Assembly (NCBI GenBank): GCA_028554755.1
Contig: JAPTOF010000010.1
Span: 3,394,001 to 3,458,000, forward strand
Direction of reading: 5' to 3'
Source: Cordia subcordata
Taxonomy: Eukaryota; Streptophyta; Magnoliopsida; Boraginales; Cordiaceae
DNA length: 64,000 nucleotides
The translations under genes were made by a program, and so were the position numbers. Each line of letters opens with the position of its first letter. Position 1 is the first letter of the stretch. Shown here piece by piece: positions 41,396 through 63,665 of the stretch. The notes below the pieces were generated by a model. The model was not told the origin of the DNA. It searched no databases and worked only from the letters and a program-made list of their open reading frames with translations.

Positions 41396-41704
41396 CCTTT
41401 CTTGATCGGACCAACCCACTCATGTTCGAAAGCAGGATGGATTGGCGGCAACAAAAACTTGTTTCATGTGTAACAAAACAGAAACTTTGAGAATTTTATT
41501 CGTGTAAAATAATTCAAAGTCAATCGATTACAACAACAATTACAAATTCTGATGAGCCATCAAGGAAGGGCCACAGGTTAAAAACACAAAATGAAAGCAT
41601 TCAATAATGCAAGGACTTTACAGCCAGACGCTCGTCAAAGAGGTCATTCAAAAAGAATACAAAATAATCTCCAAGGATGCACAAAGTTTCAAATTCACAT
41701 CAAC

Positions 41705-42857
41705 TAAAATCCTTTTGGGGAAACCAATGTGTTGAAGTGACTATGATATCCCTCGTTCAAAAATAACGAACTTAACTCATAAAACGGCTTTATTTTCCCA
41801 GATTTCATATCATAAGCAATGCAGCCGGGTAGAGGAAAGGATCCTTGCTGTCGATTGATTCAACAAAAACAGAACATCAAGAGCTCCCCGTTCTTCAACC
41901 AGCCAACAGGATAACAACCAAAGGAGCGGACTGAGCCCTCAGTCAGATATGTCCAGTATTGCAGATCAATGTTGGCTAACTTTGTCCACCCTGCAGCCAC
42001 TCCTTTTTCTGTCAAGACCCAAACTTCCCAGACGAAATTTTCACAAGTCATGAAAGAAAATGAATTACCCATCACCAGAACCATTTTCCTCTCTTGTCAC
42101 AAGATTCAGGAAGAGGATGCAACTGAAAGACTTCAAAATCGACATCCAAGGTTAGAACAGATGACATCTGTTGTGAGGTCCAATGCACAAACCTTCCAGC
42201 TGAATAGGGATGACCAGAGTGTAAGAGTTGCCAAGCGACAGGACTTAAATGGTTGGTTTCAACTTGTCTCCATGCTTTATCAACACCCACAGTTATTATT
42301 GAGCAGCTAACAGAGGAACAATATCTATCATAGTAACCGAGAACCACCTTTAATACCCTTGAAGAAGCAGCATATGCCATGCTAGTGTTATCAACTCTAA
42401 CAAATGATGACAATAAAGGGAGGGCCAATTCTTGGCTTGTACTCGGATTTCCAACAAATAAATACCGATTCTTCGAGTACAAAAGTAACCCATTGCAAGT
42501 AGCCGGTATCTTGGAATCAAACTGAAGTTTTAAGTAGGAAGCTGACATGAAACCTGATTTCCCAATTTCCACAAACTTAGCAATATTTCCTATTCTAGAC
42601 TGACCATTATTAAACCTCTTGTACAAGATGCCATAATTTGATTGCAGGAGGTGTTCGTTAATGAAAATGGGGTCTTGGATTATGTGGTACCACTCTCGGC
42701 ATACAAACCTCATAACCTTGTAAAGAATGTCTCCAGGAAGCAAAAGGAGGATCTTCAATATGATCTCCTTAGGAAGAGAAGGGATGCACCTCTTGATCTT
42801 CTTTCCATTTGAAACAATGTCACATTTCACATGTCCTTGCAAAGGTGGAAGAGTCAT
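41705..42857 (-). pseudogene. F-box protein gene, frameshifted and with a premature stop
   Basis: A minus-strand frame of 261 codons starts at ATG 42857. Residues about 25-70 are the F-box (IPSLPKEIILKILLLLPGDI, then FVCREWYHIIQDPIF). An F-box-associated region follows (PATCNGLLLYSKNRYLFVGN, ALPLLSSFVRV). Near 42085, in an A-run, the frame shifts; the family-like sequence continues in another frame (MVLVMGNSFSFMTCENFVWE, LKNGELLMFCFC) until an in-frame TGA at 41862-41860. Beyond it, still in frame, lie PLPGCIAYDMKSGKIKPFYE and an end at 41705. An unbroken gene would be about 384 residues, normal for F-box proteins, which choose substrates for SCF ubiquitin ligases. The N-terminal 261-residue product could still be made. 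No introns are seen. Confidence 0.8.
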
Positions 42858-44465: not shown

Positions 44466-44731
44466 TAGGCTGCAATTCTAGAATTCTTTGCCATCAACAA
44501 CATGCAACTAGCTATACCCTTTATAATACAAATTAAAGTTCTAAAAGAGTAACAATTGCCAAGATTTACTTTAATAATCAACACTTCAAAAATAAGCCTG
44601 CAACTCTAGAATTCTTTGCCATCAACAACATGCAACTAGCTATACCCTTTATAATACAAATTAAAGTTCTAAAAGAGTAACAATTGCCAAGATTTACTTT
44701 AATAATCAACACTTCAAAAATAAAAAATTTG
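44466..44731. repeat. ~132-bp tandem duplication, 2 near-identical copies
   Basis: The unit from CTGCAATTCTAGAATTC to AACACTTCAAAAATAA is present twice with only a few differences, so the duplication is recent. Its last copy abuts the plastid-derived rpl22 fragment and supplies that frame's new 3' end. Confidence 0.9.
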
Positions 44732-46239: not shown

Positions 46240-46690
46240 TGTCTTTCACTTGCCCTCATGGGACTTCATGGTGAAGATCTTCCAAAGCAAGATGGTTGGC
46301 AGCAATGAAAAACTTGTTTCATGTGTAAGAAAACAGAAACTTGAGAATTCTATTCATGCAAAATAATTTAAAGTCAATTGATTGAAACAATAATTAGACA
46401 TTCTGATCATGGGCCATCTTCAAGGAGGGCCACAGATTAAAAACACAAAATGGAAGCATTCTATAATGCAAGGAATTTACAGCCAGAGGTTAGAAAATAA
46501 TATGATAGATCAAGATTATAAAACAATCTTCAAGAATGCATGAAGTTTCAAATTCACATCAACTAAAATCCTTTTGGGGAAATCAATGTGTTGAAGTGAC
46601 TATAATATTCTTCGTCCCGAAACAATGAATTAAACTCGTAAAAAGGATTTATATACCAAGATTTCATATCACAAGCAATGCAACTCGCTG
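46240..46690 (-). pseudogene. F-box gene 3' remnant C
   Basis: This segment repeats the 3' flank of the F-box pseudogene (41.4-41.85 kb) almost block for block. Examples on + are AAACTTGTTTCATGTGTAA, AGTTTCAAATTCACATCAAC, TAAAATCCTTTTGGGGAAA, and GATTTCATATCACAAGCAAT, which reads CIACDMK on the minus strand. The coding 5' part is missing. Confidence 0.7.
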
Positions 46691-47894: not shown

Positions 47895-48614
47895 ATTTTT
47901 TTAACATACCTTATTTTTTCATTATGTATTTATGTGACGGTATTACGCTTTTCCCTTATGCAGTTATTTATGATCCGTGGATACTTTTATTTTAGCATTA
48001 TGGACACTACATTATCAATTGGACATTATATACTTGATTCTTTTTGTTCAAGTGAACATTATGTTGTAATTGTAAACAAAACATTACAAAATTACAACTA
48101 AGTAAAAAAAACAAAATTACAACTAAATAGGATTACTTAGATTACAATTAATATATATTACATAACAACATTTAAGATTACAACTAATACACATTACATA
48201 ACAACATTACAAGATTACAATTACACACTACGCATTTTGATTATTGGGGCAAGTTGGAGCAGTATGGCCTTGTAGACCGAATGATGTACACCTTCGTCGT
48301 CCACCTTGGTTTTAGCAATCCATCTAGTTTCAAATGCACCGGCCTCCAGCTTGAAATAATGTCCATAATGCTAAAATAAAAGCATTCACGAATCATAAAT
48401 AACTGCATAAGGGAAAAACATAATACCGTCCCATAAATACATAATGAAAAAATAAGGTATGTTAAAAAAAAATTGCAAAAACACCAGCCGCATTCCCGGA
48501 ACTCGCCCAACGTGTTCCCAGAATGAGATTGGGTCATTTTTTAAAATCAATCCAAAAGCAAGTCATTTTTACAAAGAATATTAAAAATTGGGTCAAAAAA
48601 AATAAAAAATCCCA
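47895..48614. mobile_element. long-TIR element, copy 2, reverse orientation and truncated
   Basis: This is the reverse complement of the element at 11.47-12.43 kb. The core blocks GATTATTGGGGCAAGTTGGA and GTCGTCCACCTTGGTTTTAG are present at about 48238-48318. The arms TTATGATCCGTGGATAC and TTCACGAATCATAAATA pair with each other. The right outer arm (AAAGAATATTAAAAATTGGG) is kept, but the left outer arm of about 150 bp is missing. Confidence 0.7.
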
Positions 48615-51731: not shown

Positions 51732-54700
51732 ATGTCAAAAATGTTCCAAGCAGACTGGCATTGCATGGAATTTATGATCAACCTGCCAGCCATCAACAAA
51801 AAGAGATGGCGTTGGGCTCGTGTAAACTTGTTTTGTCGACAAGCTTTTGTTTCTCTCCTCAAACTTGTCGCGAACAAGAGAAAGCTTATTTCAACTTCGC
51901 GTTCAGAAAAAGTTATTATCATAAACACAAGCAAGTATTCGCCTATCCCACCTGATCACAGAATCCTCAAGATTGATGATGAGAATGTTTCTCATTCTCA
52001 TTATCATAATCTCTCCAGCTTCTCCAATGCTGATCCTAAAAGCTTTTCTAAGATTGTTAAGGAGAAAAGCGTTGAGCAGCTTGACCACCTTGGAGGCATC
52101 GAAGGTATAGCTACTTCCATAAAAAGTGACATCAACCATGGAATCATGGGTGATGTTACAGATGTTTTACATAGAAAAGCAGCTTTCGGGACAAACACTT
52201 ATCATAAGCCACCAACGAAAGGCTTCTTCCACTTTGTGTGGGAGGCATTTAAAGATCCTACTATTCTGATTCTAATGGTGTGTGCTGCATTTTCTCTTGG
52301 ATTTGGCATCAAAGAGCATGGCCCCAAAGAAGGATGGTATGATGGGGGCAGCATATTTGTGGCTGTTTTTCTTGTCATATCTGTTTCTGCTATAAGTAAC
52401 TTCAGGCAAAACAGGCAATTCGATAAGCTTTCCAAAATAAGTAACAACATACAAGTTGAAGTTGTCAGGAGTGGTAGGAGGCAACAGATTTCGATATTCG
52501 AAATCGTTGTTGGAGACGTTGTTTGCTTGAAAATTGGCGATCAGGTGCCCGCTGATGGATTGTTCTTAGAAGGGCATTCATTACAGGTTGATGAATCAAG
52601 CATGACCGGTGAAAGCGAACATGTTGAAGTTAATCGTGATCAAAATCCCTTCTTGTTGTCTGGAACCAAGGTGGCAGATGGATATGCCAAAATGCTTGTC
52701 ACTTCCGTTGGAATGAACACGACCTGGGGCGCGATGATGAGCACGATAAGTCAGGATTCGAGTGAAGAAACGCCTCTCCAATCCAGGCTGAACAAGCTAA
52801 CCTCTGCGATTGGTAAGGTTGGTTTAGCAGTTGCTTTCTTGGTTCTTGTGGTGTTGCTGGTGCGATACTTTACAGGAAACACGAGAGATGAATATGGAAA
52901 TAGAGAATACAATGGCAGCAAGACGAAGGCAGACGATGTGATCAACGCTGTGGTGGGAATCATTGCTGATGCAGTTACCATTGTCGTTGTAGCGATTCCA
53001 GAAGGCCTACCATTGGCGGTCACGCTTACTCTCGCATATTCGATGAAGAGAATGATGGCAGACCAGGCCATGGTGAGAAAGCTCTCGGCTTGTGAGACCA
53101 TGGGCTCTGCCACAACTATATGTACTGATAAAACAGGTACTCTCACACTGAATCAGATGAAGGTAATAAAATTTTGGCATGGTGAAGTGCCTATAGAAGG
53201 AAGAAGTTGTTCTCCAATAGCAGACAATGTTATTGACTTGCTCCACCAGGGGGTTAGTCTCAACACCACAGGTGGAGTATATAAGTCTGATGCGGTATCC
53301 GATTTTGAGTTCTCGGGCAGTCCAACAGAGAAAGCAATCCTTCAATGGGCTGTCCTGGAATTAGAGATGGATATGGAGCAAGTAAAGCAAAAGCATCTTA
53401 TTCTACATGTAGAAGCATTCAACTCAGAGAAAAAGAGAAGTGGCGTTTTGGTGAAGAAAGTAAAAGACAACACAGTCCATGTACACTGGAAGGGGGCTGC
53501 TGAGATGATTTTGGCAATGTGTACACATTACTATGATCAAGCTGGAAACTTGAGAGCTCTTGATGACCAAAAGCGAAATATGTTTGATCAGATAATTCAA
53601 GGTATGGCATCTAGCAGTCTTCGATGCATTGCATTTGCGCATAAGCAAATTCAAGAGTCGGAGCAAGATATTGAAGAAACATACGAGAAGATACCAGGAA
53701 AACATTTGGCCCTCCTGGGGCTTGTAGGCCTGAAGGATCCATGTAGGCCTGGTGTGAAGACAGCCGTGGAAGATTGCCACTACGCGGGTGTAAATATCAA
53801 AATGATCACTGGCGATAACATTTTCACTGCAAGAGCCATAGCCACGGAATGTGGAATACTTCAGCTTCATGAGGAAATAGATGGAGCAGTGGTCGACGGT
53901 GTAGAATTTCGTAACTTCACAGAAGAGGAGCGAATGGAGAAAGTCGATAGAATACGTGTCATGGCAAGATCATCTCCATTCGACAAGCTTTTGATGGTGC
54001 AATGCCTGAAAAAGAAAGGCCATGTCGTCGCAGTGACAGGTGATGGTACAAATGATGCTCCAGCACTGAAGGAAGCTGATATAGGATTGTCTATGGGGAT
54101 CCAAGGTACTGAAGTAGCTAAAGAAAGTTCAGATATTGTCATCTTGGATGATAATTTTGCTTCTGTCGCTACGGTTCTCAAATGGGGAAGATGTGTTTAC
54201 AACAACATTCAGAAATTCATCCAATTCCAGCTCACTGTGAATGTAGCGGCTCTGGTGATCAACTTTGTAGCAGCAGTGTCAGCTGGCGAGGTACCATTAA
54301 CAGCAGTTCAGCTGTTGTGGGTGAACCTTATCATGGACACCTTGGGGGCCTTGGCTCTTGCTACAGAAAAACCAACAAATGAGCTCATGGAGAAGCCACC
54401 TGTGGGCAGAACTGAGCCACTTATCACCAATATTATGTGGAGGAACCTACTAGCTCAAGCCTTATATCAGATAGCAATTCTTTTGACATTACAGTTCAAA
54501 GGTGAGTCAATATTTGGTGTTAGTGAGAAGGTAAATGACACTCTAATTTTCAATACGTTTGTTCTTTGTCAAATATTCAACGAATTCAACGCGCGAAAAC
54601 TGGAGAAGAAGAATGTCTTTGAAGGCATATACAAGAACAAGTTGTTCATGGGTATAATAGCAGTTACTCTCATTCTACAAGTGGTGATGGTGGAGTTCCT

Positions 54701-54863
54701 ACAGAAATTCGCAGATACAGAGAGGTTGAATTGGGGGCAATGGGGAGCATGTGTGGGAATTGCAGCTGCGTCCTGGCCAATCGGCTGGCTCGTCAAATGT
54801 ATACCTGTTCCAGAAAAACCAATATTTAGTTATTTGACATGGAAGAACCTCAAGTTTATGTAA
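51732..54863 (+). CDS. plasma-membrane-type autoinhibited Ca2+-ATPase (ACA12/13-like), intronless
   Basis: A single exon of 1043 codons encodes a P2B-type ATPase that exports Ca2+ from the cytosol at the cost of ATP. The N terminus holds a basic/aromatic calmodulin-binding autoinhibitory stretch (KKRWRWARVNLFCRQAFVSL, about residues 23-42). All catalytic signatures are complete: TGES at 292-295, PEGL with Glu424 in membrane segment 4, DKTGT with phosphorylated Asp466, nucleotide-site Lys587 in KGAAE, MITGDN at 691-696, and TGDGTNDAP at 769-777 with Asp771 and Asp775. Ca2+ ligands are present: Asn837 in segment 5, and Asn865 and Asp869 in segment 6 (LWVNLIMDT). Lack of introns is typical of the ACA12/ACA13 subgroup. 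Nearby in-frame Met12 and Met15 are possible alternative starts. A diverged paralogue lies 5.7 kb downstream in the same orientation. Confidence 0.96.
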   Translation: MSKMFQADWHCMEFMINLPAINKKRWRWARVNLFCRQAFVSLLKLVANKRKLISTSRSEKVIIINTSKYSPIPPDHRILKIDDENVSHSHYHNLSSFSNADPKSFSKIVKEKSVEQLDHLGGIEGIATSIKSDINHGIMGDVTDVLHRKAAFGTNTYHKPPTKGFFHFVWEAFKDPTILILMVCAAFSLGFGIKEHGPKEGWYDGGSIFVAVFLVISVSAISNFRQNRQFDKLSKISNNIQVEVVRSGRRQQISIFEIVVGDVVCLKIGDQVPADGLFLEGHSLQVDESSMTGESEHVEVNRDQNPFLLSGTKVADGYAKMLVTSVGMNTTWGAMMSTISQDSSEETPLQSRLNKLTSAIGKVGLAVAFLVLVVLLVRYFTGNTRDEYGNREYNGSKTKADDVINAVVGIIADAVTIVVVAIPEGLPLAVTLTLAYSMKRMMADQAMVRKLSACETMGSATTICTDKTGTLTLNQMKVIKFWHGEVPIEGRSCSPIADNVIDLLHQGVSLNTTGGVYKSDAVSDFEFSGSPTEKAILQWAVLELEMDMEQVKQKHLILHVEAFNSEKKRSGVLVKKVKDNTVHVHWKGAAEMILAMCTHYYDQAGNLRALDDQKRNMFDQIIQGMASSSLRCIAFAHKQIQESEQDIEETYEKIPGKHLALLGLVGLKDPCRPGVKTAVEDCHYAGVNIKMITGDNIFTARAIATECGILQLHEEIDGAVVDGVEFRNFTEEERMEKVDRIRVMARSSPFDKLLMVQCLKKKGHVVAVTGDGTNDAPALKEADIGLSMGIQGTEVAKESSDIVILDDNFASVATVLKWGRCVYNNIQKFIQFQLTVNVAALVINFVAAVSAGEVPLTAVQLLWVNLIMDTLGALALATEKPTNELMEKPPVGRTEPLITNIMWRNLLAQALYQIAILLTLQFKGESIFGVSEKVNDTLIFNTFVLCQIFNEFNARKLEKKNVFEGIYKNKLFMGIIAVTLILQVVMVEFLQKFADTERLNWGQWGACVGIAAASWPIGWLVKCIPVPEKPIFSYLTWKNLKFM

Positions 54864-56183
54864 TTTGGTAGTAACTATTCACAACATTCAGTTTGTTTCT
54901 CTACTAGTTATCATTACAAATAATTATCTATGCATATATTATTGTATTAATCATGGTTCATATTTGTAATAGTTTCAGATTCTTTTACTTGCGTTCAACT
55001 TCTCCTGAAATATAGGAGCAGATCCTGCATTTTGGCGCATTGGTTTTGTCGGTTGATTAGCTTGCCGACCTGTCAATTTCGGCATTCGTTCATGTGTTCA
55101 ACTTACCAACTAAGCTTTGTGGGATTGCAACTCTTTTCAATGTGAATGATTTGACATATAATTTCCTTTCGGTCAACTATAGATGGCAGTGTTGCAATCA
55201 TAGTTTCTGCTGTGGGACTGCTTTGAAATTAACAGCAGCATGTTTCAAATTCACACTTGGAAAATCCTGTTTTGTTTTCTGCAAGAAATCATTAAGTTTG
55301 ATCTCCTGACATCATGCTTGGAGGAGGATGATGATAGCCAATATGAAAAATAAATGAAGTTAAAAGAGGGCAAGCCTGATCCACAAAAGCTATGGAAGAA
55401 AGGTTATAACACTTTTGAGTCTCTTCCACATAGCAGCATAACTTGTCATCAAATTAATCAAGTAATGATAGCAAGATGTTAGATTGTTTTTCAGGCGGTT
55501 TAAGTGATGTTAACTACTAACCTGAGATGCATCATATTTGCAGATGATGAAAAAGGAAAATGGTAAAAGTCCGAATGAGATATAGTTGCAGATATACATA
55601 CTGTCACCACAGCAGCATAAACAACACTAATGGATTAATCCTGTTTCTTCGACAAATTTAGCACTTGCTTATGAAATTGCAATTTTGGTCATGAGGATTA
55701 AAGGAAATGCAGTGTCATCCATCTATACCAAATCTTAAGATAAGAGTATTTGACAAGTTAATTTATGGTATAAATTAACTTTGAAAGGTTGTTGAAAAGC
55801 TTGTAAACAGAAAACACCGTTTAGGCTCAATACACACGAGGTGCCCCTCTATTGCTTCACTTAGAACGTGTCGAATGAGAGTGTGTCTACCATCAGGAGG
55901 GGGAGAAAAGTCATTTACCATGGGCTGCAGCTCTTGTCGACTGGCAAACTTCCACACAAGCATCTCTATAACAATTGCAAAATCATATTCCATCACAATT
56001 TCTCAAAGCAATCCACACTCAACAGCTTGATCTCCTCCTTAAAGATCCACAGCTCAGCCATCAGACCTGTTGCTCTGCCAATGATGCCATTGTAACCACT
56101 AATATATACAGCCTCATCTCCCTCACCAGCCACGCAAATCCTGCACCATATTTAGCAGCGCCATTAGGGGTAAGCTTGATATT

Positions 56184-56605
56184 GTTAACATAATAAATAG
56201 ATAAAGCAATATCCTCTCTACAAGCTTAAGCTTTTAGATGATGTGGTAACTCTAAGATGGTACGGCACAGATTTGATCCTTACCGCTGTCCATTTAAAAA
56301 AAAATATTAAATTATTCACGTGCAAGTTCTAAACAAATTACACCACACGTGAAAGGACATGTTAACATAATAAATAGATAAAGCAATATCTTCTCTACAA
56401 GCTTAAGCTTTTAGATGAGGTGGAAGCCAAATGGTACAGGTTCGATCCTTACCACCATCCATTGAAAAAATATATATATTAAATTATCCACGTGCAAATT
56501 CTAAACATATTACGCTACACATGAAAAGGCGTGTTAACATAATAAATAGATAAAGTAATATCCTCTCTACAAGCTTAAGCTTTTACATGAGGTGGTAACT
56601 CTAAG
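56184..56605. repeat. three tandem units of ~172-177 bp
   Basis: GTTAACATAATAAATAGATA starts each unit at about 56184, 56361 and 56533. Each continues with TCTCTACAAGCTTAAGCTTT and a segment GATCCTTACCRCYRTCCATT (absent in the partial third unit). They resemble reiterated pieces of a retroelement terminus; the source is not identified. Confidence 0.85.
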
Positions 56606-56737
56606 AGATATAACCTCTAGGGGACTCAAGATCAATTTCAATTCAGTTATCGTTTCTATAGAAAGTTTGGGCTACTTCTGTTGAGTAATGATTAACCCGA
56701 AAGGCTAAACATTTCGTGTGAGATTACTATGTTTTGA

Positions 56738-60569: not shown

Positions 60570-63500
60570 ATGTGTGAGGTTTTGCAGGTGAGCTTTGACG
60601 GAGTAGAGTTGGCTCCTGTTCCCAGCACAGCACGGAAGAGATGGCGCGTAGCTTATACAACTGTTTATAGCACAAGGGCCTTGCTCTCTCTAGCCACAAG
60701 AGAGATTGCAGCTGATCCCCAAGATGATCTGTTTGAGGATCTTTTGCAGTCTCCATCTTATGCAGTGGTGGATGTCGAACCAGACGGTTTCCCCATCGAC
60801 CCGACTACCTTCAACAAGCTCGTTGAGGAGAAGAACCTTGAATTGCTTCATCAAATTGGAGGGGTTGAAAGGGTGGCCTTAGCTCTCGACACAAATGCAA
60901 AGATGGGGATTCAAGGCCATGCTGCAGATCTTGACAGCCGACGCCAAGTCTATGGTTCAAACATATTCCAAAGGCCACCTCCAAGAACCTGGAAAATCGT
61001 GTTGGAGACCTTGAAAGATCCCATCATCATCGTCCTGCTCATATGTGCAGCACTTTCCCTTGGTTTCGGCATCAAAAAACACGGGACAAAAGGATGGTCG
61101 GATGGGGGAAGCATATTTGTTGCAGTCGTTCTAGTCATCACCATCACTGCTTTAAGCAATATCTGGCCTAGAAGACAATTCTACAAGCTATCAAAAGCTT
61201 TTGACAGTATCCCCATTGAGGTCATAAGAAATGGGCAAAAGCAGCGAATTTCCATATTTGAAGCCGTTGTTGGAGATGTTGTTTGCTTGAAAGTTGGAAA
61301 TCAAGTTCCTGCAGATGGCCTGTATACAACTGGAGAGTCCTTGAAGGTGGACGAATCAAACATTACTGCAGAAAAGGAACCCGTGCAGATCAATCACACC
61401 CAGAATCCATTCTTGCTTTCTGGTACTGTGGTGACTAATGGTTCTGCTCAAATGATTGTCACCGCTGTGGGCATGAACACTAAAAGGGGAAAGATGATAA
61501 GCCCGCAACGCCATGATTCCACTAAGAGGACACATTTACAAGGGAAGCTACATAAGCTGACCTTACAGATTGCTGTGGTTGGTCTTGTGGTGGCTTCTCT
61601 GGCTCTTCTTGTGTTGTTGATACGTTATTTTATAGGAAATATGCATGACGACAATGGATACTCAGAATTTGCTCCTGGCCAGACAGGTATTCATGAAGTG
61701 TTCAATGCCATCATCGGAATTTTAGCTACACCCATTGCAATTGCATCAGCTGCTATTCCAGAGGGTCTTCTGCTGGCTGTCACGATAACTATTGGATATT
61801 CAACCAAGAAGATGGCAAAAGAACGTGCCTTTGTGAGAATTCTTTCAGCCTGTGAAGTTGCTGGTGCTGTGACTGTGATTTGCACAAATAAAAGGGGCAC
61901 CCTGACACTAAACTGCCTAAAGGTAAGCCAATTTTGGCTAGGCCCGAAGTTGATTGGAAAAGATCTAAGTTCCTCCTCTATTTTATCAGATGTTTTTGAA
62001 TTATTCTGCGAAGGAATTGGCTGCAACAAAGCTGGGGTCCCATCAGAAAATGTCTCAGATGTTAGTGAAAATCAAACTGAAGAGGCAATTCATGATTGGT
62101 GTGACCAAGAAATAGGTATGGACATTGAACGAATGAGGAACAATTATACCGTTCTCCATGATGAGAACCCTGCTCTGCATATGGTCAATGGTGGCATAGT
62201 GATCCAAAAAAAGGCTGACAAAACTGTCCATGTCCACAAGAGGGGAACACCAAGGGAGATACTTGCCTTGTGTTCACATTATTATGAGGAAAATGGGACC
62301 ATAAGTTACATCAATACTTGCACAAGGGAAAGACTGGAGTGCATAATACAAGAGATGGAGAACAATTGCATCCAGTGTATTGCTTTCGCACATAAAAAAA
62401 TTTCCGGAGCAAATGATGAAGACAACAGCAGTGTCCATGCCGATCTTCAAGGAAAGTTTCTGAACTTACTAGGATTTGTAGGTCTGAAAAACCCATGTCG
62501 ACCCAAGGTAAAGGAAGCTTTGGCGATTTTTCAACTTGCTGGAGTAGATATCAAGATGGTCACAAAAGACAATGTGCCCACAGCCAGAGCAGTGGCCATA
62601 GAATGCGGTATAATCAAGCCAAATCAAGACATTGCCCTAGGAGAAGTAGTTGAAGGGGAAGAATTTCGAAATTACGAACCCAATGAGATATCGGAGAAGG
62701 CTGATAAAATACGTGTGGTTGCAAGAGCCACTACATTAGACAAACATCTGATCGTAGATTCCTTGAAAAAGAAAGGTCACGTGGTTGCAGTTACTGGAGA
62801 CAGCATGGATGATGCACCCGCACTTAGGGAAGCTAATGTAGGACTTGCTCTTGGGACTGATGTAACGGACATTGCAAAAGAAAATTCAGACATCATCATC
62901 AATGATGATAACTTTGCTGCTGTGGTCAGTGTCGTGAGATGGGGAAGAGGTATGTATAACAACACCCAAATATTTACCCAATTCCAGCTAACTGCTAGCA
63001 TTGCTTCTCTAGTGATCGACTTTGTGACAACAATTTCTGCTAGCAAGCCTCCAACTATCAAGATTGTTACAGCCATTTCAGCAGGTCAAGTTCCTTATGC
63101 GGCACTTCAGGTACTCTGGGCAAAGGTCATAGTAGGTACACTTGCAGCTGTGGCTCTCACTGTAGAAAAGCCCACGGAAGAGCTAATGAAACAACCACCT
63201 GTAGATTGGAATGGACCTTTCATAACCAATATCATGTGGAGAAATATAGTGAGTCAAGCTCTATATCAGATCATAATTTTGTTGACCATACAGTTCAAGG
63301 GTGAAGAAATCTTTAATCTAAGTCCTAGAGAAAAGGACACCATGATCTTTAACATTTTTGTTCTCTGCCAAGTCTTTATCATTCTCAACACGAGAAAGTT
63401 CGAAAAGAACATCTTCAGGGAGCTGCAGAGAAAGAAATTGTTTTGGGGTATAGTTGGTACAATAGTTCTGCTTCAGGTTGTGATTGTTGAATTATTGAAG

Positions 63501-63665
63501 AGGTTTGCAAATACAGAGAGGTTGAACTGGTGGCAATGGGTTGTTTGTATTGTGTTTGGCATTCTGTCTTGGCCAATTGGTTGGCTGCTAAAAAGCATAC
63601 CAATTCCGCAGAAGCCTTTTCTCAGCTATTGCAGCCGCAGGAACTCAAGTTATAGACACATTTGA
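60570..63665 (+). CDS. catalytically degenerate Ca2+-ATPase paralogue (pseudo-ATPase, ACA12/13-like), intronless
   Basis: An unbroken single exon of 1031 codons is collinear with the ACA gene upstream, including a basic N-terminal calmodulin-type site (ARKRWRVAYTTVYSTRALLS), ten or so membrane segments and the cytosolic domains. The catalytic signatures are altered. The phosphorylation motif DKTGT reads NKRGT (Asn440), TGES reads TAEK (266-269), KGAAE is RGTPR with Arg558 for the ATP-site Lys, ITGDN is VTKDN (Lys666), and TGDGTND is TGDSMDD (742-748). In membrane segments 5 and 6 the Ca2+ ligands Asn, Asn and Asp are Ser810, Lys852 and Gly856; only Glu398 of PEGL in segment 4 is kept. About 14 extra residues (SKPPTIKIVTAIS) sit between segments 5 and 6. 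It cannot follow the normal P-type cycle. A regulatory or scaffold role is inferred; recent decay is the alternative. The ATG at 60570 is the first in frame. Confidence 0.9.
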   Translation: MCEVLQVSFDGVELAPVPSTARKRWRVAYTTVYSTRALLSLATREIAADPQDDLFEDLLQSPSYAVVDVEPDGFPIDPTTFNKLVEEKNLELLHQIGGVERVALALDTNAKMGIQGHAADLDSRRQVYGSNIFQRPPPRTWKIVLETLKDPIIIVLLICAALSLGFGIKKHGTKGWSDGGSIFVAVVLVITITALSNIWPRRQFYKLSKAFDSIPIEVIRNGQKQRISIFEAVVGDVVCLKVGNQVPADGLYTTGESLKVDESNITAEKEPVQINHTQNPFLLSGTVVTNGSAQMIVTAVGMNTKRGKMISPQRHDSTKRTHLQGKLHKLTLQIAVVGLVVASLALLVLLIRYFIGNMHDDNGYSEFAPGQTGIHEVFNAIIGILATPIAIASAAIPEGLLLAVTITIGYSTKKMAKERAFVRILSACEVAGAVTVICTNKRGTLTLNCLKVSQFWLGPKLIGKDLSSSSILSDVFELFCEGIGCNKAGVPSENVSDVSENQTEEAIHDWCDQEIGMDIERMRNNYTVLHDENPALHMVNGGIVIQKKADKTVHVHKRGTPREILALCSHYYEENGTISYINTCTRERLECIIQEMENNCIQCIAFAHKKISGANDEDNSSVHADLQGKFLNLLGFVGLKNPCRPKVKEALAIFQLAGVDIKMVTKDNVPTARAVAIECGIIKPNQDIALGEVVEGEEFRNYEPNEISEKADKIRVVARATTLDKHLIVDSLKKKGHVVAVTGDSMDDAPALREANVGLALGTDVTDIAKENSDIIINDDNFAAVVSVVRWGRGMYNNTQIFTQFQLTASIASLVIDFVTTISASKPPTIKIVTAISAGQVPYAALQVLWAKVIVGTLAAVALTVEKPTEELMKQPPVDWNGPFITNIMWRNIVSQALYQIIILLTIQFKGEEIFNLSPREKDTMIFNIFVLCQVFIILNTRKFEKNIFRELQRKKLFWGIVGTIVLLQVVIVELLKRFANTERLNWWQWVVCIVFGILSWPIGWLLKSIPIPQKPFLSYCSRRNSSYRHI

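What the first reader, a model, noticed from the sequence alone, without database searches (positions are those of the whole stretch)
60570..63665. Full-length pseudo-Ca2+-ATPase: intact 1031-codon frame with a dead phosphorylation site
Seen directly: the invariant DKTGT of P-type ATPases is NKRGT (Asp to Asn at 440), TGES is TAEK, the ATP-site Lys is Arg558, ITGDN is VTKDN and TGDGTND is TGDSMDD, while no stop or frameshift occurs in 3.1 kb. Established: the Asp in DKTGT forms the obligatory phosphoenzyme, and Asp-to-Asn abolishes pumping. Inference: a neutral pseudogene should have gained lesions by the time so many conserved motif positions changed. The open frame therefore suggests selection for a non-enzymatic role such as regulator, calmodulin sink or partner of active ACAs. 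I know of no described plant P2B pseudo-pump.
Basis: partly seen in the sequence, partly recalled or inferred. Interest (0 to 1): 0.92.

Follow-up and report, generated by a model that had tools for sequence, protein, structure and literature searches.

The report
Ancient dead calcium pump, still kept
A plant gene that looks like a cell-membrane calcium pump has lost key residues for taking up phosphate and holding calcium, yet full-length relatives with the same altered calcium site occur across the asterid plants (tomato, coffee, tea, dove tree), so it likely no longer pumps and likely serves a different, still unknown regulatory job in the membrane.

Summary
The 1031-codon single-exon frame at 60570-63665 is open and carries NKRGT, TAEK, Arg558, VTKDN and TGDSMDD.

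It is not a lone relic. Its genome holds a second intact type-A copy and two intron-bearing type-B copies. Of 236 retrieved proteins classified, 54 carry M5 Asp with M6 Lys (Arg in one); the named ones are asterids. Types A and B form one clade, also when trait columns are removed.

Window copy versus paralogue: omega 0.41, rejecting 1. Constraint is strongest in M3-M6 (0.13) and weakest in the phosphorylation/nucleotide region (0.61); canonical pumps show the same order at lower values.

Loss of the catalytic Asp is not the defining lesion: 17 of 52 readable members keep it. The rebuilt ion site is.

Best reading: an ancient, retained pseudo-pump, likely a non-transporting membrane regulator beside active ACA pumps. 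The regulatory step is inferred; expression and function are untested. Ten paper searches found no description.

The parts
60570..63665 (+). type-A pseudo-pump gene (A1, P0001), single exon, 1031 codons plus stop
   Evidence: omega 0.41 to paralogue; P-type fold predicted
60627..60710 (+). predicted N-terminal helix, residues 20-47, with K23 and W25; calmodulin-binding-like by recall, not tested
   Evidence: helix H20-47 (low pLDDT); K23 and W25 in 90% or more of 15 type-A rows
61365..61376 (+). TGES position reads TAEK (266-269)
61761..61772 (+). M4 ion-site Glu398 kept; Pro of PEGLP is Leu401
   Evidence: Glu kept in 29 of 31, Pro lost in 31 of 31 pseudo rows
61887..61901 (+). DKTGT position reads NKRGT (Asn440)
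62241..62243 (+). nucleotide-site Lys (KGA) is Arg558
62565..62570 (+). TGDN position reads TKDN (K666, D667)
62799..62813 (+). DGTND of TGDGTND reads DSMDD (744-748)
   Evidence: Asn of ND lost in 31 of 31 pseudo rows
63018..63020 (+). M5 Asp817, Asn in canonical pumps
   Evidence: Asp in 32 of 32 pseudo rows of the tree set, Asn in 29 of 29 canonical rows
63027..63068 (+). 14-residue insertion (820-833) between M5 and M6
   Evidence: 32 of 32 pseudo rows; 1 of 29 canonical rows, an unrelated stretch in Perilla P0111
63123..63137 (+). M6 Ca2+-site: Asn is Lys852, Asp is Gly856
   Evidence: Lys852 in 32 of 32, Gly856 in 30 of 32 pseudo rows; Asn and Asp in 29 of 29 canonical rows
51732..54863 (+). 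neighbouring canonical ACA12/13-type pump gene (P0002), same strand, upstream
   Evidence: 17 of 17 scored residues canonical; groups with canonical ACA12/13 rows

Best explanation
The gene encodes a full-length relative of the plant plasma-membrane Ca2+ pumps ACA12/13 whose phosphorylation motif and M6 Ca2+-site residues are replaced and whose sequence evolves at omega 0.41, so it likely cannot pump and likely works as a non-transporting regulator in the membrane. Shown: the P-type fold is predicted along the whole protein. M6 Asn and Asp (Ca2+ ligands in canonical pumps, by recall) are Lys852 and Gly856, M5 gains Asp817 and 14 residues are added between M5 and M6; these traits are shared by two subclades of one clade, type A seen from Cornales and Ericales to campanulids and lamiids, type B in campanulids and lamiids. 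Constraint is strongest on M3-M6 and weakest on the phosphorylation and nucleotide region. Inferred: Asp817 and Lys852 form a buried charge pair that takes the place of the ion and fixes the transmembrane part in one conformation. The protein, predicted to sit in the same membrane as its canonical kin, then binds ACA pumps or their partners through its membrane core and enlarged outer loop, and so tunes Ca2+ efflux without pumping. I hold the retained pseudo-pump at about 0.9 and the partner-binding mechanism at about 0.4.
For: Dead sites: 8 of 17 scored residues canonical in this copy, 17 of 17 in each of 8 canonical pumps. Clade: A plus B one clade, SH-aLRT 100, and again 100 with the trait columns removed. 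New residues: Asp817 and Lys852 in 32 of 32 pseudo rows, insertion in 32 of 32; no intermediates among 236 proteins: 54 with the signature, 181 canonical, 1 canonical but for Asp to Asn. Selection: omega 0.405 for A1/A2, 2dlnL 86.6; 0.328 for B1/B2, 2dlnL 137.5. Where: M3-M6 0.126, P1 plus N domain 0.608, rest 0.389, 2dlnL 49.7 for 2 df. Within type A, M5-M6 is also the most alike region between species, mean identity 0.70. Linkage to canonical pumps: the window and its inverted twin, and gene numbers or equal contig lengths in Ilex, Paulownia, Escallonia, Cinchona and Nyssa. Fold: top matches ACA8 8qmp and PMCA2.
Against: No transcript, peptide or phenotype was seen. Omega comes from paralogue pairs in one genome, not from orthologues. 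P1 plus N still rejects omega = 1 (0.608, 2dlnL 14.4), so the cytosolic part is not free. The canonical pair shows the same order of constraint (0.033, 0.224, 0.154), so the guarded membrane core is inherited, not new. Of 52 readable members 17 keep the catalytic Asp, and 3 of those (P0005, P0023, P0136) keep the GDG Asp too. Membership of the 54 was decided by the M5 and M6 residues themselves, and the tree rows were picked after seeing motifs, so those counts are partly by construction. The type-B genes of this genome lie on another contig than the canonical pair. The Asp817-Lys852 distance was not measured; the model has mean pLDDT 71.4 and is below 50 at 829-842 in the M5-M6 loop.
Confidence: 0.55

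Rival explanations
1. It is a neutral or nearly neutral pseudogene that happens to keep its frame.
For: Many pump motifs have changed; omega in the phosphorylation and nucleotide part is 0.61.
Against: Omega 0.405 rejects 1; about 23 nonsense hits expected and none seen in each of two copies; full-length relatives with the same new ion-site residues in many asterids. A related copy in this genome, L005, did gain two stops.
Confidence: 0.03
2. It is a calmodulin sink or dominant-negative pump that acts through its N-terminal calmodulin-binding-like helix.
For: K23 and W25 are in 90% or more of 15 type-A rows and a helix is predicted there.
Against: Residues 1-90 have omega 0.60 in the pseudo pair and 0.61 in the canonical pair, neither different from 1. 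Of five type-B starts printed (own B1 and four relatives) none shows such a helix, but two of the four relatives are truncated models and an upstream exon is not excluded. Passages of PMC5920303 say that ACA12 lacks the autoinhibitory domain and are divided on ACA13.
Confidence: 0.12
3. It still moves something: a pump with a changed ion and Lys852 as built-in counter-ion, or a passive conduit left after loss of the cycle.
For: The former ion pathway M3-M6 is the most constrained part; M4 Glu398 is kept in 29 of 31 rows; 17 of 52 readable members keep the catalytic Asp.
Against: In this copy the phosphorylated Asp is Asn and both M6 residues are replaced; the Asn of GDGxND is lost in 31 of 31 rows. 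Of the 17 members with Asp, 13 have lost the GDG Asp, 3 keep it, 1 is not covered.
Confidence: 0.2
4. Sequencing, assembly or haplotype artefact.
For: Raw reads could not be checked.
Against: The second copy is only 73% identical, so no haplotype, and independent genomes carry the same ion-site residues.
Confidence: 0.01

Closest known systems
Plant P2B Ca2+-ATPases ACA12/ACA13 (cluster 3)
   Same: Single-exon gene, about 50% identity and similar length; nearest canonical relatives. ACA12 and ACA13 are encoded by intronless genes (PMC5920303 passage).
   Different: Catalytic and M6 ion-site residues replaced; 14-residue insertion between M5 and M6.
ACA8 (PDB 8qmp), solved plant Ca2+ pump
   Different: ACA8 has the DKTGT, TGES, LLWVN and IMD motifs and no insertion between M5 and M6 (alignment).
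Pseudoenzymes in general (pseudokinases, iRhoms)
   Same: A retained fold without catalytic residues; reviews PMC5106787 and PMC10211241 (start of abstract in search listing only).
   Different: Here an ion pump loses the catalytic motifs and the site of its ion; no such P-type clade was seen described in my ten searches.
KdpB and gastric H,K-ATPase, pumps with an intramembrane Lys (recalled)
   Same: A basic residue sits where an ion or counter-ion would act (recalled).
   Different: Those pumps keep DKTGT and cycle (recalled); here the Lys is in M6 and comes with loss of the catalytic motifs.

Membership tests
P2B (ACA) Ca2+-ATPase, by descent | Sequence homology and P-type domain architecture | tested here: met
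   Pfam PF00689, PF00122, PF00690 and PF00702 above cut-off, the last matching 612-756 only; PF13246, found in the neighbour, is not listed; tree; fold
Functional P-type ATPase | Asp in DKTGT that forms the phosphoenzyme | tested here: not met
   Asn440
Functional P-type ATPase | TGES, TGDN and GDGxND motifs | tested here: not met
   TAEK (Glu kept), VTKDN, GDSMDD
P2B Ca2+ transporter | Ca2+ ligands M4 Glu, M6 Asn and M6 Asp (assignment recalled) | tested here: not met
   M4 Glu398 kept; M6 Lys852 and Gly856
ACA cluster 3 (ACA12/13) | Intronless gene | tested here: met
   one open exon; the two type-B kin in this genome have one GT-AG intron each
Pseudoenzyme | Catalytic residues lost while fold and frame are kept under purifying selection | tested here: met
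Pseudoenzyme | No catalytic activity in assay, and a non-catalytic function | not testable with these tools
   needs bench work
Autoinhibited (calmodulin-regulated) pump | Functional N-terminal calmodulin-binding domain | tested here: inconclusive
   K23 and W25 conserved in type A, but omega 0.60 not different from 1; binding not tested

The most novel reading that the evidence does not exclude
Early in the asterids a copy of a plasma-membrane Ca2+ pump was turned into a new class of membrane protein: the bound ion was replaced by a built-in Asp-Lys pair between M5 and M6, the outer M5-M6 loop was enlarged, and the dead pump became a receptor-like or regulatory subunit that has been kept, often beside its active kin, from dove tree and tea to coffee, olive and tomato.
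Probability: 0.4. Interest if true: 0.92.

Novelty: new variant of a known kind. Interest (0 to 1): 0.86.

Why it matters
P-type pumps are defined by the phosphorylated Asp and an ion site. A clade that lost the M6 ion site and varies at the Asp, yet stayed full-length across many asterids, would show that a pump scaffold can be kept for something other than transport. Many public records name these genes calcium-transporting ATPase 12 or 13. The one family survey I saw in part, in pepper, reports motifs with DKTGTLT and LLWVN and all ten motifs in all eleven ACA/ECA members (PMC11641697, passages and outline), and the passages I saw mention no altered member. Studies that count every ACA12/13-named gene of tomato, coffee, tea or olive as a pump may be misled. 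Tomato and tobacco copies make the question directly testable.

Tried and rejected
Neutral pseudogene: rejected by omega, missing stops and cross-species retention. Decay control: the related copy L005, with two stops, against open L008 gave omega 0.58 over 787 codons, above the 0.41 of A1/A2, but it too rejects 1 (2dlnL 22.3), so it is a soft control. Asp-to-Asn as the founding event: not supported; on the trait-free tree D/not-D at 440 needs 4 changes, residue 817 needs 1, residue 852 needs 2, one of them in L008. Rosid members: none among the listed best 120 of each search, but only listed hits were inspected, so absence is not shown; Vitis P0006 proved to be two fused canonical pumps. Calmodulin sink: weakened, not excluded. 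Bio.codonalign YN00 failed for most pairs and that script stopped with exit status 1 after partial output; replaced by own GY94 fits. Small-window omegas are noisy, hence the pooled test. The canonical pair may be affected by gene conversion (uneven dS). The sweet-potato drought Ca2+-ATPase (PMC5821372, passages) and the olive/Xylella ACA12 (PMC12337395, passages) could be members or canonical pumps; I had no sequence to tell. Rfam: nothing at gathering score in the window.

Rows left out: P0006 from the count; Nelumbo P0214; the tree uses 65 chosen rows (30 canonical, 19 A, 13 B, L008, 2 outgroup), not all 237 proteins. In one search, 31 pseudo rows and 8 canonical rows of alignment A2 were scored. 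Papers: PMC3372433, PMC5106787 and PMC10211241 seen only in search listings; PMC5920303, PMC5821372 and PMC12337395 as passages; PMC11641697 as passages and outline. Domain boundaries, ligand assignments, plant orders other than the four looked up, and the KdpB and H,K-ATPase remarks are recalled.
Full report

NOT ALONE IN ITS GENOME. The window lies in a 472-Mb unnamed plant genome. About 69 kb downstream of the gene lies an inverted second pair: an intact type-A copy (L002, 73% identical; GKSGT, TTET, VTKDD, TGDSVDD) and a canonical pump (L004), so the order is canonical, pseudo, gap, pseudo, canonical. On another contig lie two further copies, type B (L006, L007), each with one intron after the phosphorylation-site exon, with NKTGT, the insertion, and the M6 Lys and Gly; the intron ends are GT-AG in both.

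A CLADE IN THE ASTERIDS. Three protein searches listed 235 proteins; with the two window proteins 237. Of the 236 classified (the fused Vitis model P0006 left out), 54 carry M5 Asp with M6 Lys (Arg in P0009), 181 are canonical, and one pecan protein is canonical but for Asp to Asn. The class was drawn by those two residues, so their presence in all 54 is by construction; what is not by construction is that no mixed forms were seen and that the 14-residue insertion goes with the class (52 of the 53 with Lys have 10 or more of its residues; the exception is the gene model P0160). Named members are from Davidia, Nyssa, Ilex, Escallonia, Camellia, Coffea, Cinchona, Oldenlandia, Nicotiana, Capsicum, Datura, Withania, Lycium, Solanum, Ipomoea, Lithospermum, Paulownia, Perilla, Olea, Fraxinus and Penstemon; Davidia, Ilex, Camellia and Escallonia were looked up and are asterids, the others are so by recall. 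In a 65-row tree A plus B is one clade (SH-aLRT 100), A 98, B 100, and the window copy groups with L002 and then with Lithospermum, whose end branch is long and whose place is therefore unsure. The clade stays (100) when the catalytic, M4 and M5-M6 columns are removed. Type A is seen in Cornales, Ericales, campanulids and lamiids; type B, among the listed hits, in campanulids and lamiids. The place of the clade among eudicot ACA12/13 genes is not settled. Type A in coffee and tomato makes it at least as old as their split, 83-89 million years by PMC3372433 (abstract in the listing); Davidia and Camellia make it older.

WHICH LESION DEFINES IT. At the catalytic position the 54 read Asn 33, Asp 17, Ser 2, not covered 2 (with P0009); the own paralogue L002 reads Gly. 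In the tree set, Asp817 and Lys852 are in 32 of 32 pseudo rows, with Asn and Asn in 29 of 29 canonical rows; Gly856 is in 30 of 32; the insertion is in 32 of 32 against 1 of 29, where it is an unrelated stretch. The Asn of GDGxND is lost in 31 of 31 rows. So the altered ion site goes with the whole clade, while the Asp was lost more than once, or lost and regained (4 changes of D/not-D on the trait-free tree). Of the 17 members with Asp, 13 have lost the GDG Asp, 3 keep it (P0005, P0023, P0136) and 1 is not covered. That M6 Asn and Asp are Ca2+ ligands is recalled; that ACA8 and PMCA2 both have them is in the alignments.

SELECTION. ML codon fits: window copy against L002 dN 0.177, dS 0.437, omega 0.405 (coarse interval 0.37-0.45), 2dlnL 86.6 against omega = 1; B1/B2 0.328 (137.5); canonical pair 0.219 (160.1). 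With a common synonymous clock the window pair has omega 0.126 in M3-M6, 0.608 in P1 plus N and 0.389 in the rest (2dlnL 49.7, 2 df); P1 plus N still rejects 1 (14.4). The canonical pair shows the same order at lower values, 0.033, 0.224 and 0.154. So constraint is relaxed about 2.5- to 4-fold in each of the three parts, the membrane core remains the most guarded, and the short P1 stretch shows the sharpest release (0.72, not different from 1, against 0.00 in the canonical pair, 35 codons). Residues 1-90 are at 0.60 and 0.61 in the two pairs. Between species, mean pairwise identity within type A is highest in M5-M6 (0.70) and in most regions lower than among canonical pumps. Neutral drift since the split would give about 23 nonsense hits in each copy; none is seen.

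NEIGHBOURHOOD. Linkage with canonical pumps recurs. Six Ilex proteins (A: P0004, P0009; B: P0153, P0169, P0170; canonical: P0130) share a contig length of 585,663 and are inferred to lie on one contig. Paulownia Pfo_026296 (A) and 026297 (canonical), Escallonia RJ640_011475 and 011480 (B) and 011482 (canonical), and Cinchona ACH5RR_033177, 033192 and 033194 (A) and 033183 (canonical) have near-consecutive gene numbers. The Nyssa model P0005 fuses the C-terminal half of a canonical pump to a type-A protein, the same order as in the window. Against this, the type-B genes of the window's genome lie on another contig.

HOW IT LIKELY WORKS. Shown: the replaced motifs, the replaced ion site, the clade and the pattern of constraint. 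Inferred: no transport; a buried Asp817-Lys852 pair in place of the ion, which holds the membrane part in one state; partner binding through the membrane core and outer loop, which tunes the ACA pumps. The calmodulin-sink version is less likely because the N-terminal 90 residues are among the fastest-changing parts and type B, where the model start looks whole, lacks the helix. A changed or passive transport function is not excluded.

LITERATURE. Ten searches of the open-access library gave no description of catalytically dead plant P2B pumps. The pepper survey PMC11641697 (passages and outline) reports all ten motifs in all eleven members, with DKTGTLT and LLWVN, although a type-A protein exists in Capsicum baccatum (P0013). 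Most subscription papers are not in that library.

LIMITS.

Noticed in passing
L008 / G000:C2:5571478-5574423 (-); L005 / G000:C2:5734488-5737446 (+): A third odd ACA12/13-like lineage in the same genome: L008 is open and keeps DKTGT but has TSNS, PENLS and an altered M6 (LLWVGIITE); its kin L005 has two stops.
   Followed up: partly
protein P0135 (Carya illinoinensis): A pecan ACA13-type protein with NKTGT but otherwise canonical motifs, possibly a separate young loss or an error.
   Followed up: no
window 42072-42857 (-), repeats 41567-41823 and 46426-46682: Open frame of 261 aa with an F-box domain (PF12937), near a 257-nt stretch repeated 4.9 kb away at 83% identity.
   Followed up: partly
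window 47896-48470: Inverted repeat, arms of 114 nt, 94% complementary, 347 nt apart; looks like a fold-back element.
   Followed up: no
window 56183-56606: Three copies of a 75-nt unit at 172-177 nt spacing between the canonical and the pseudo-pump gene.
   Followed up: no
window 44467-44722: Head-to-tail duplication of 128 nt, 98% identical, likely recent.
   Followed up: no
protein P0005 (Nyssa sinensis): Public gene model that fuses a canonical pump's C-terminal half with a type-A pseudo-pump, probably an annotation error that preserves the gene order.
   Followed up: yes
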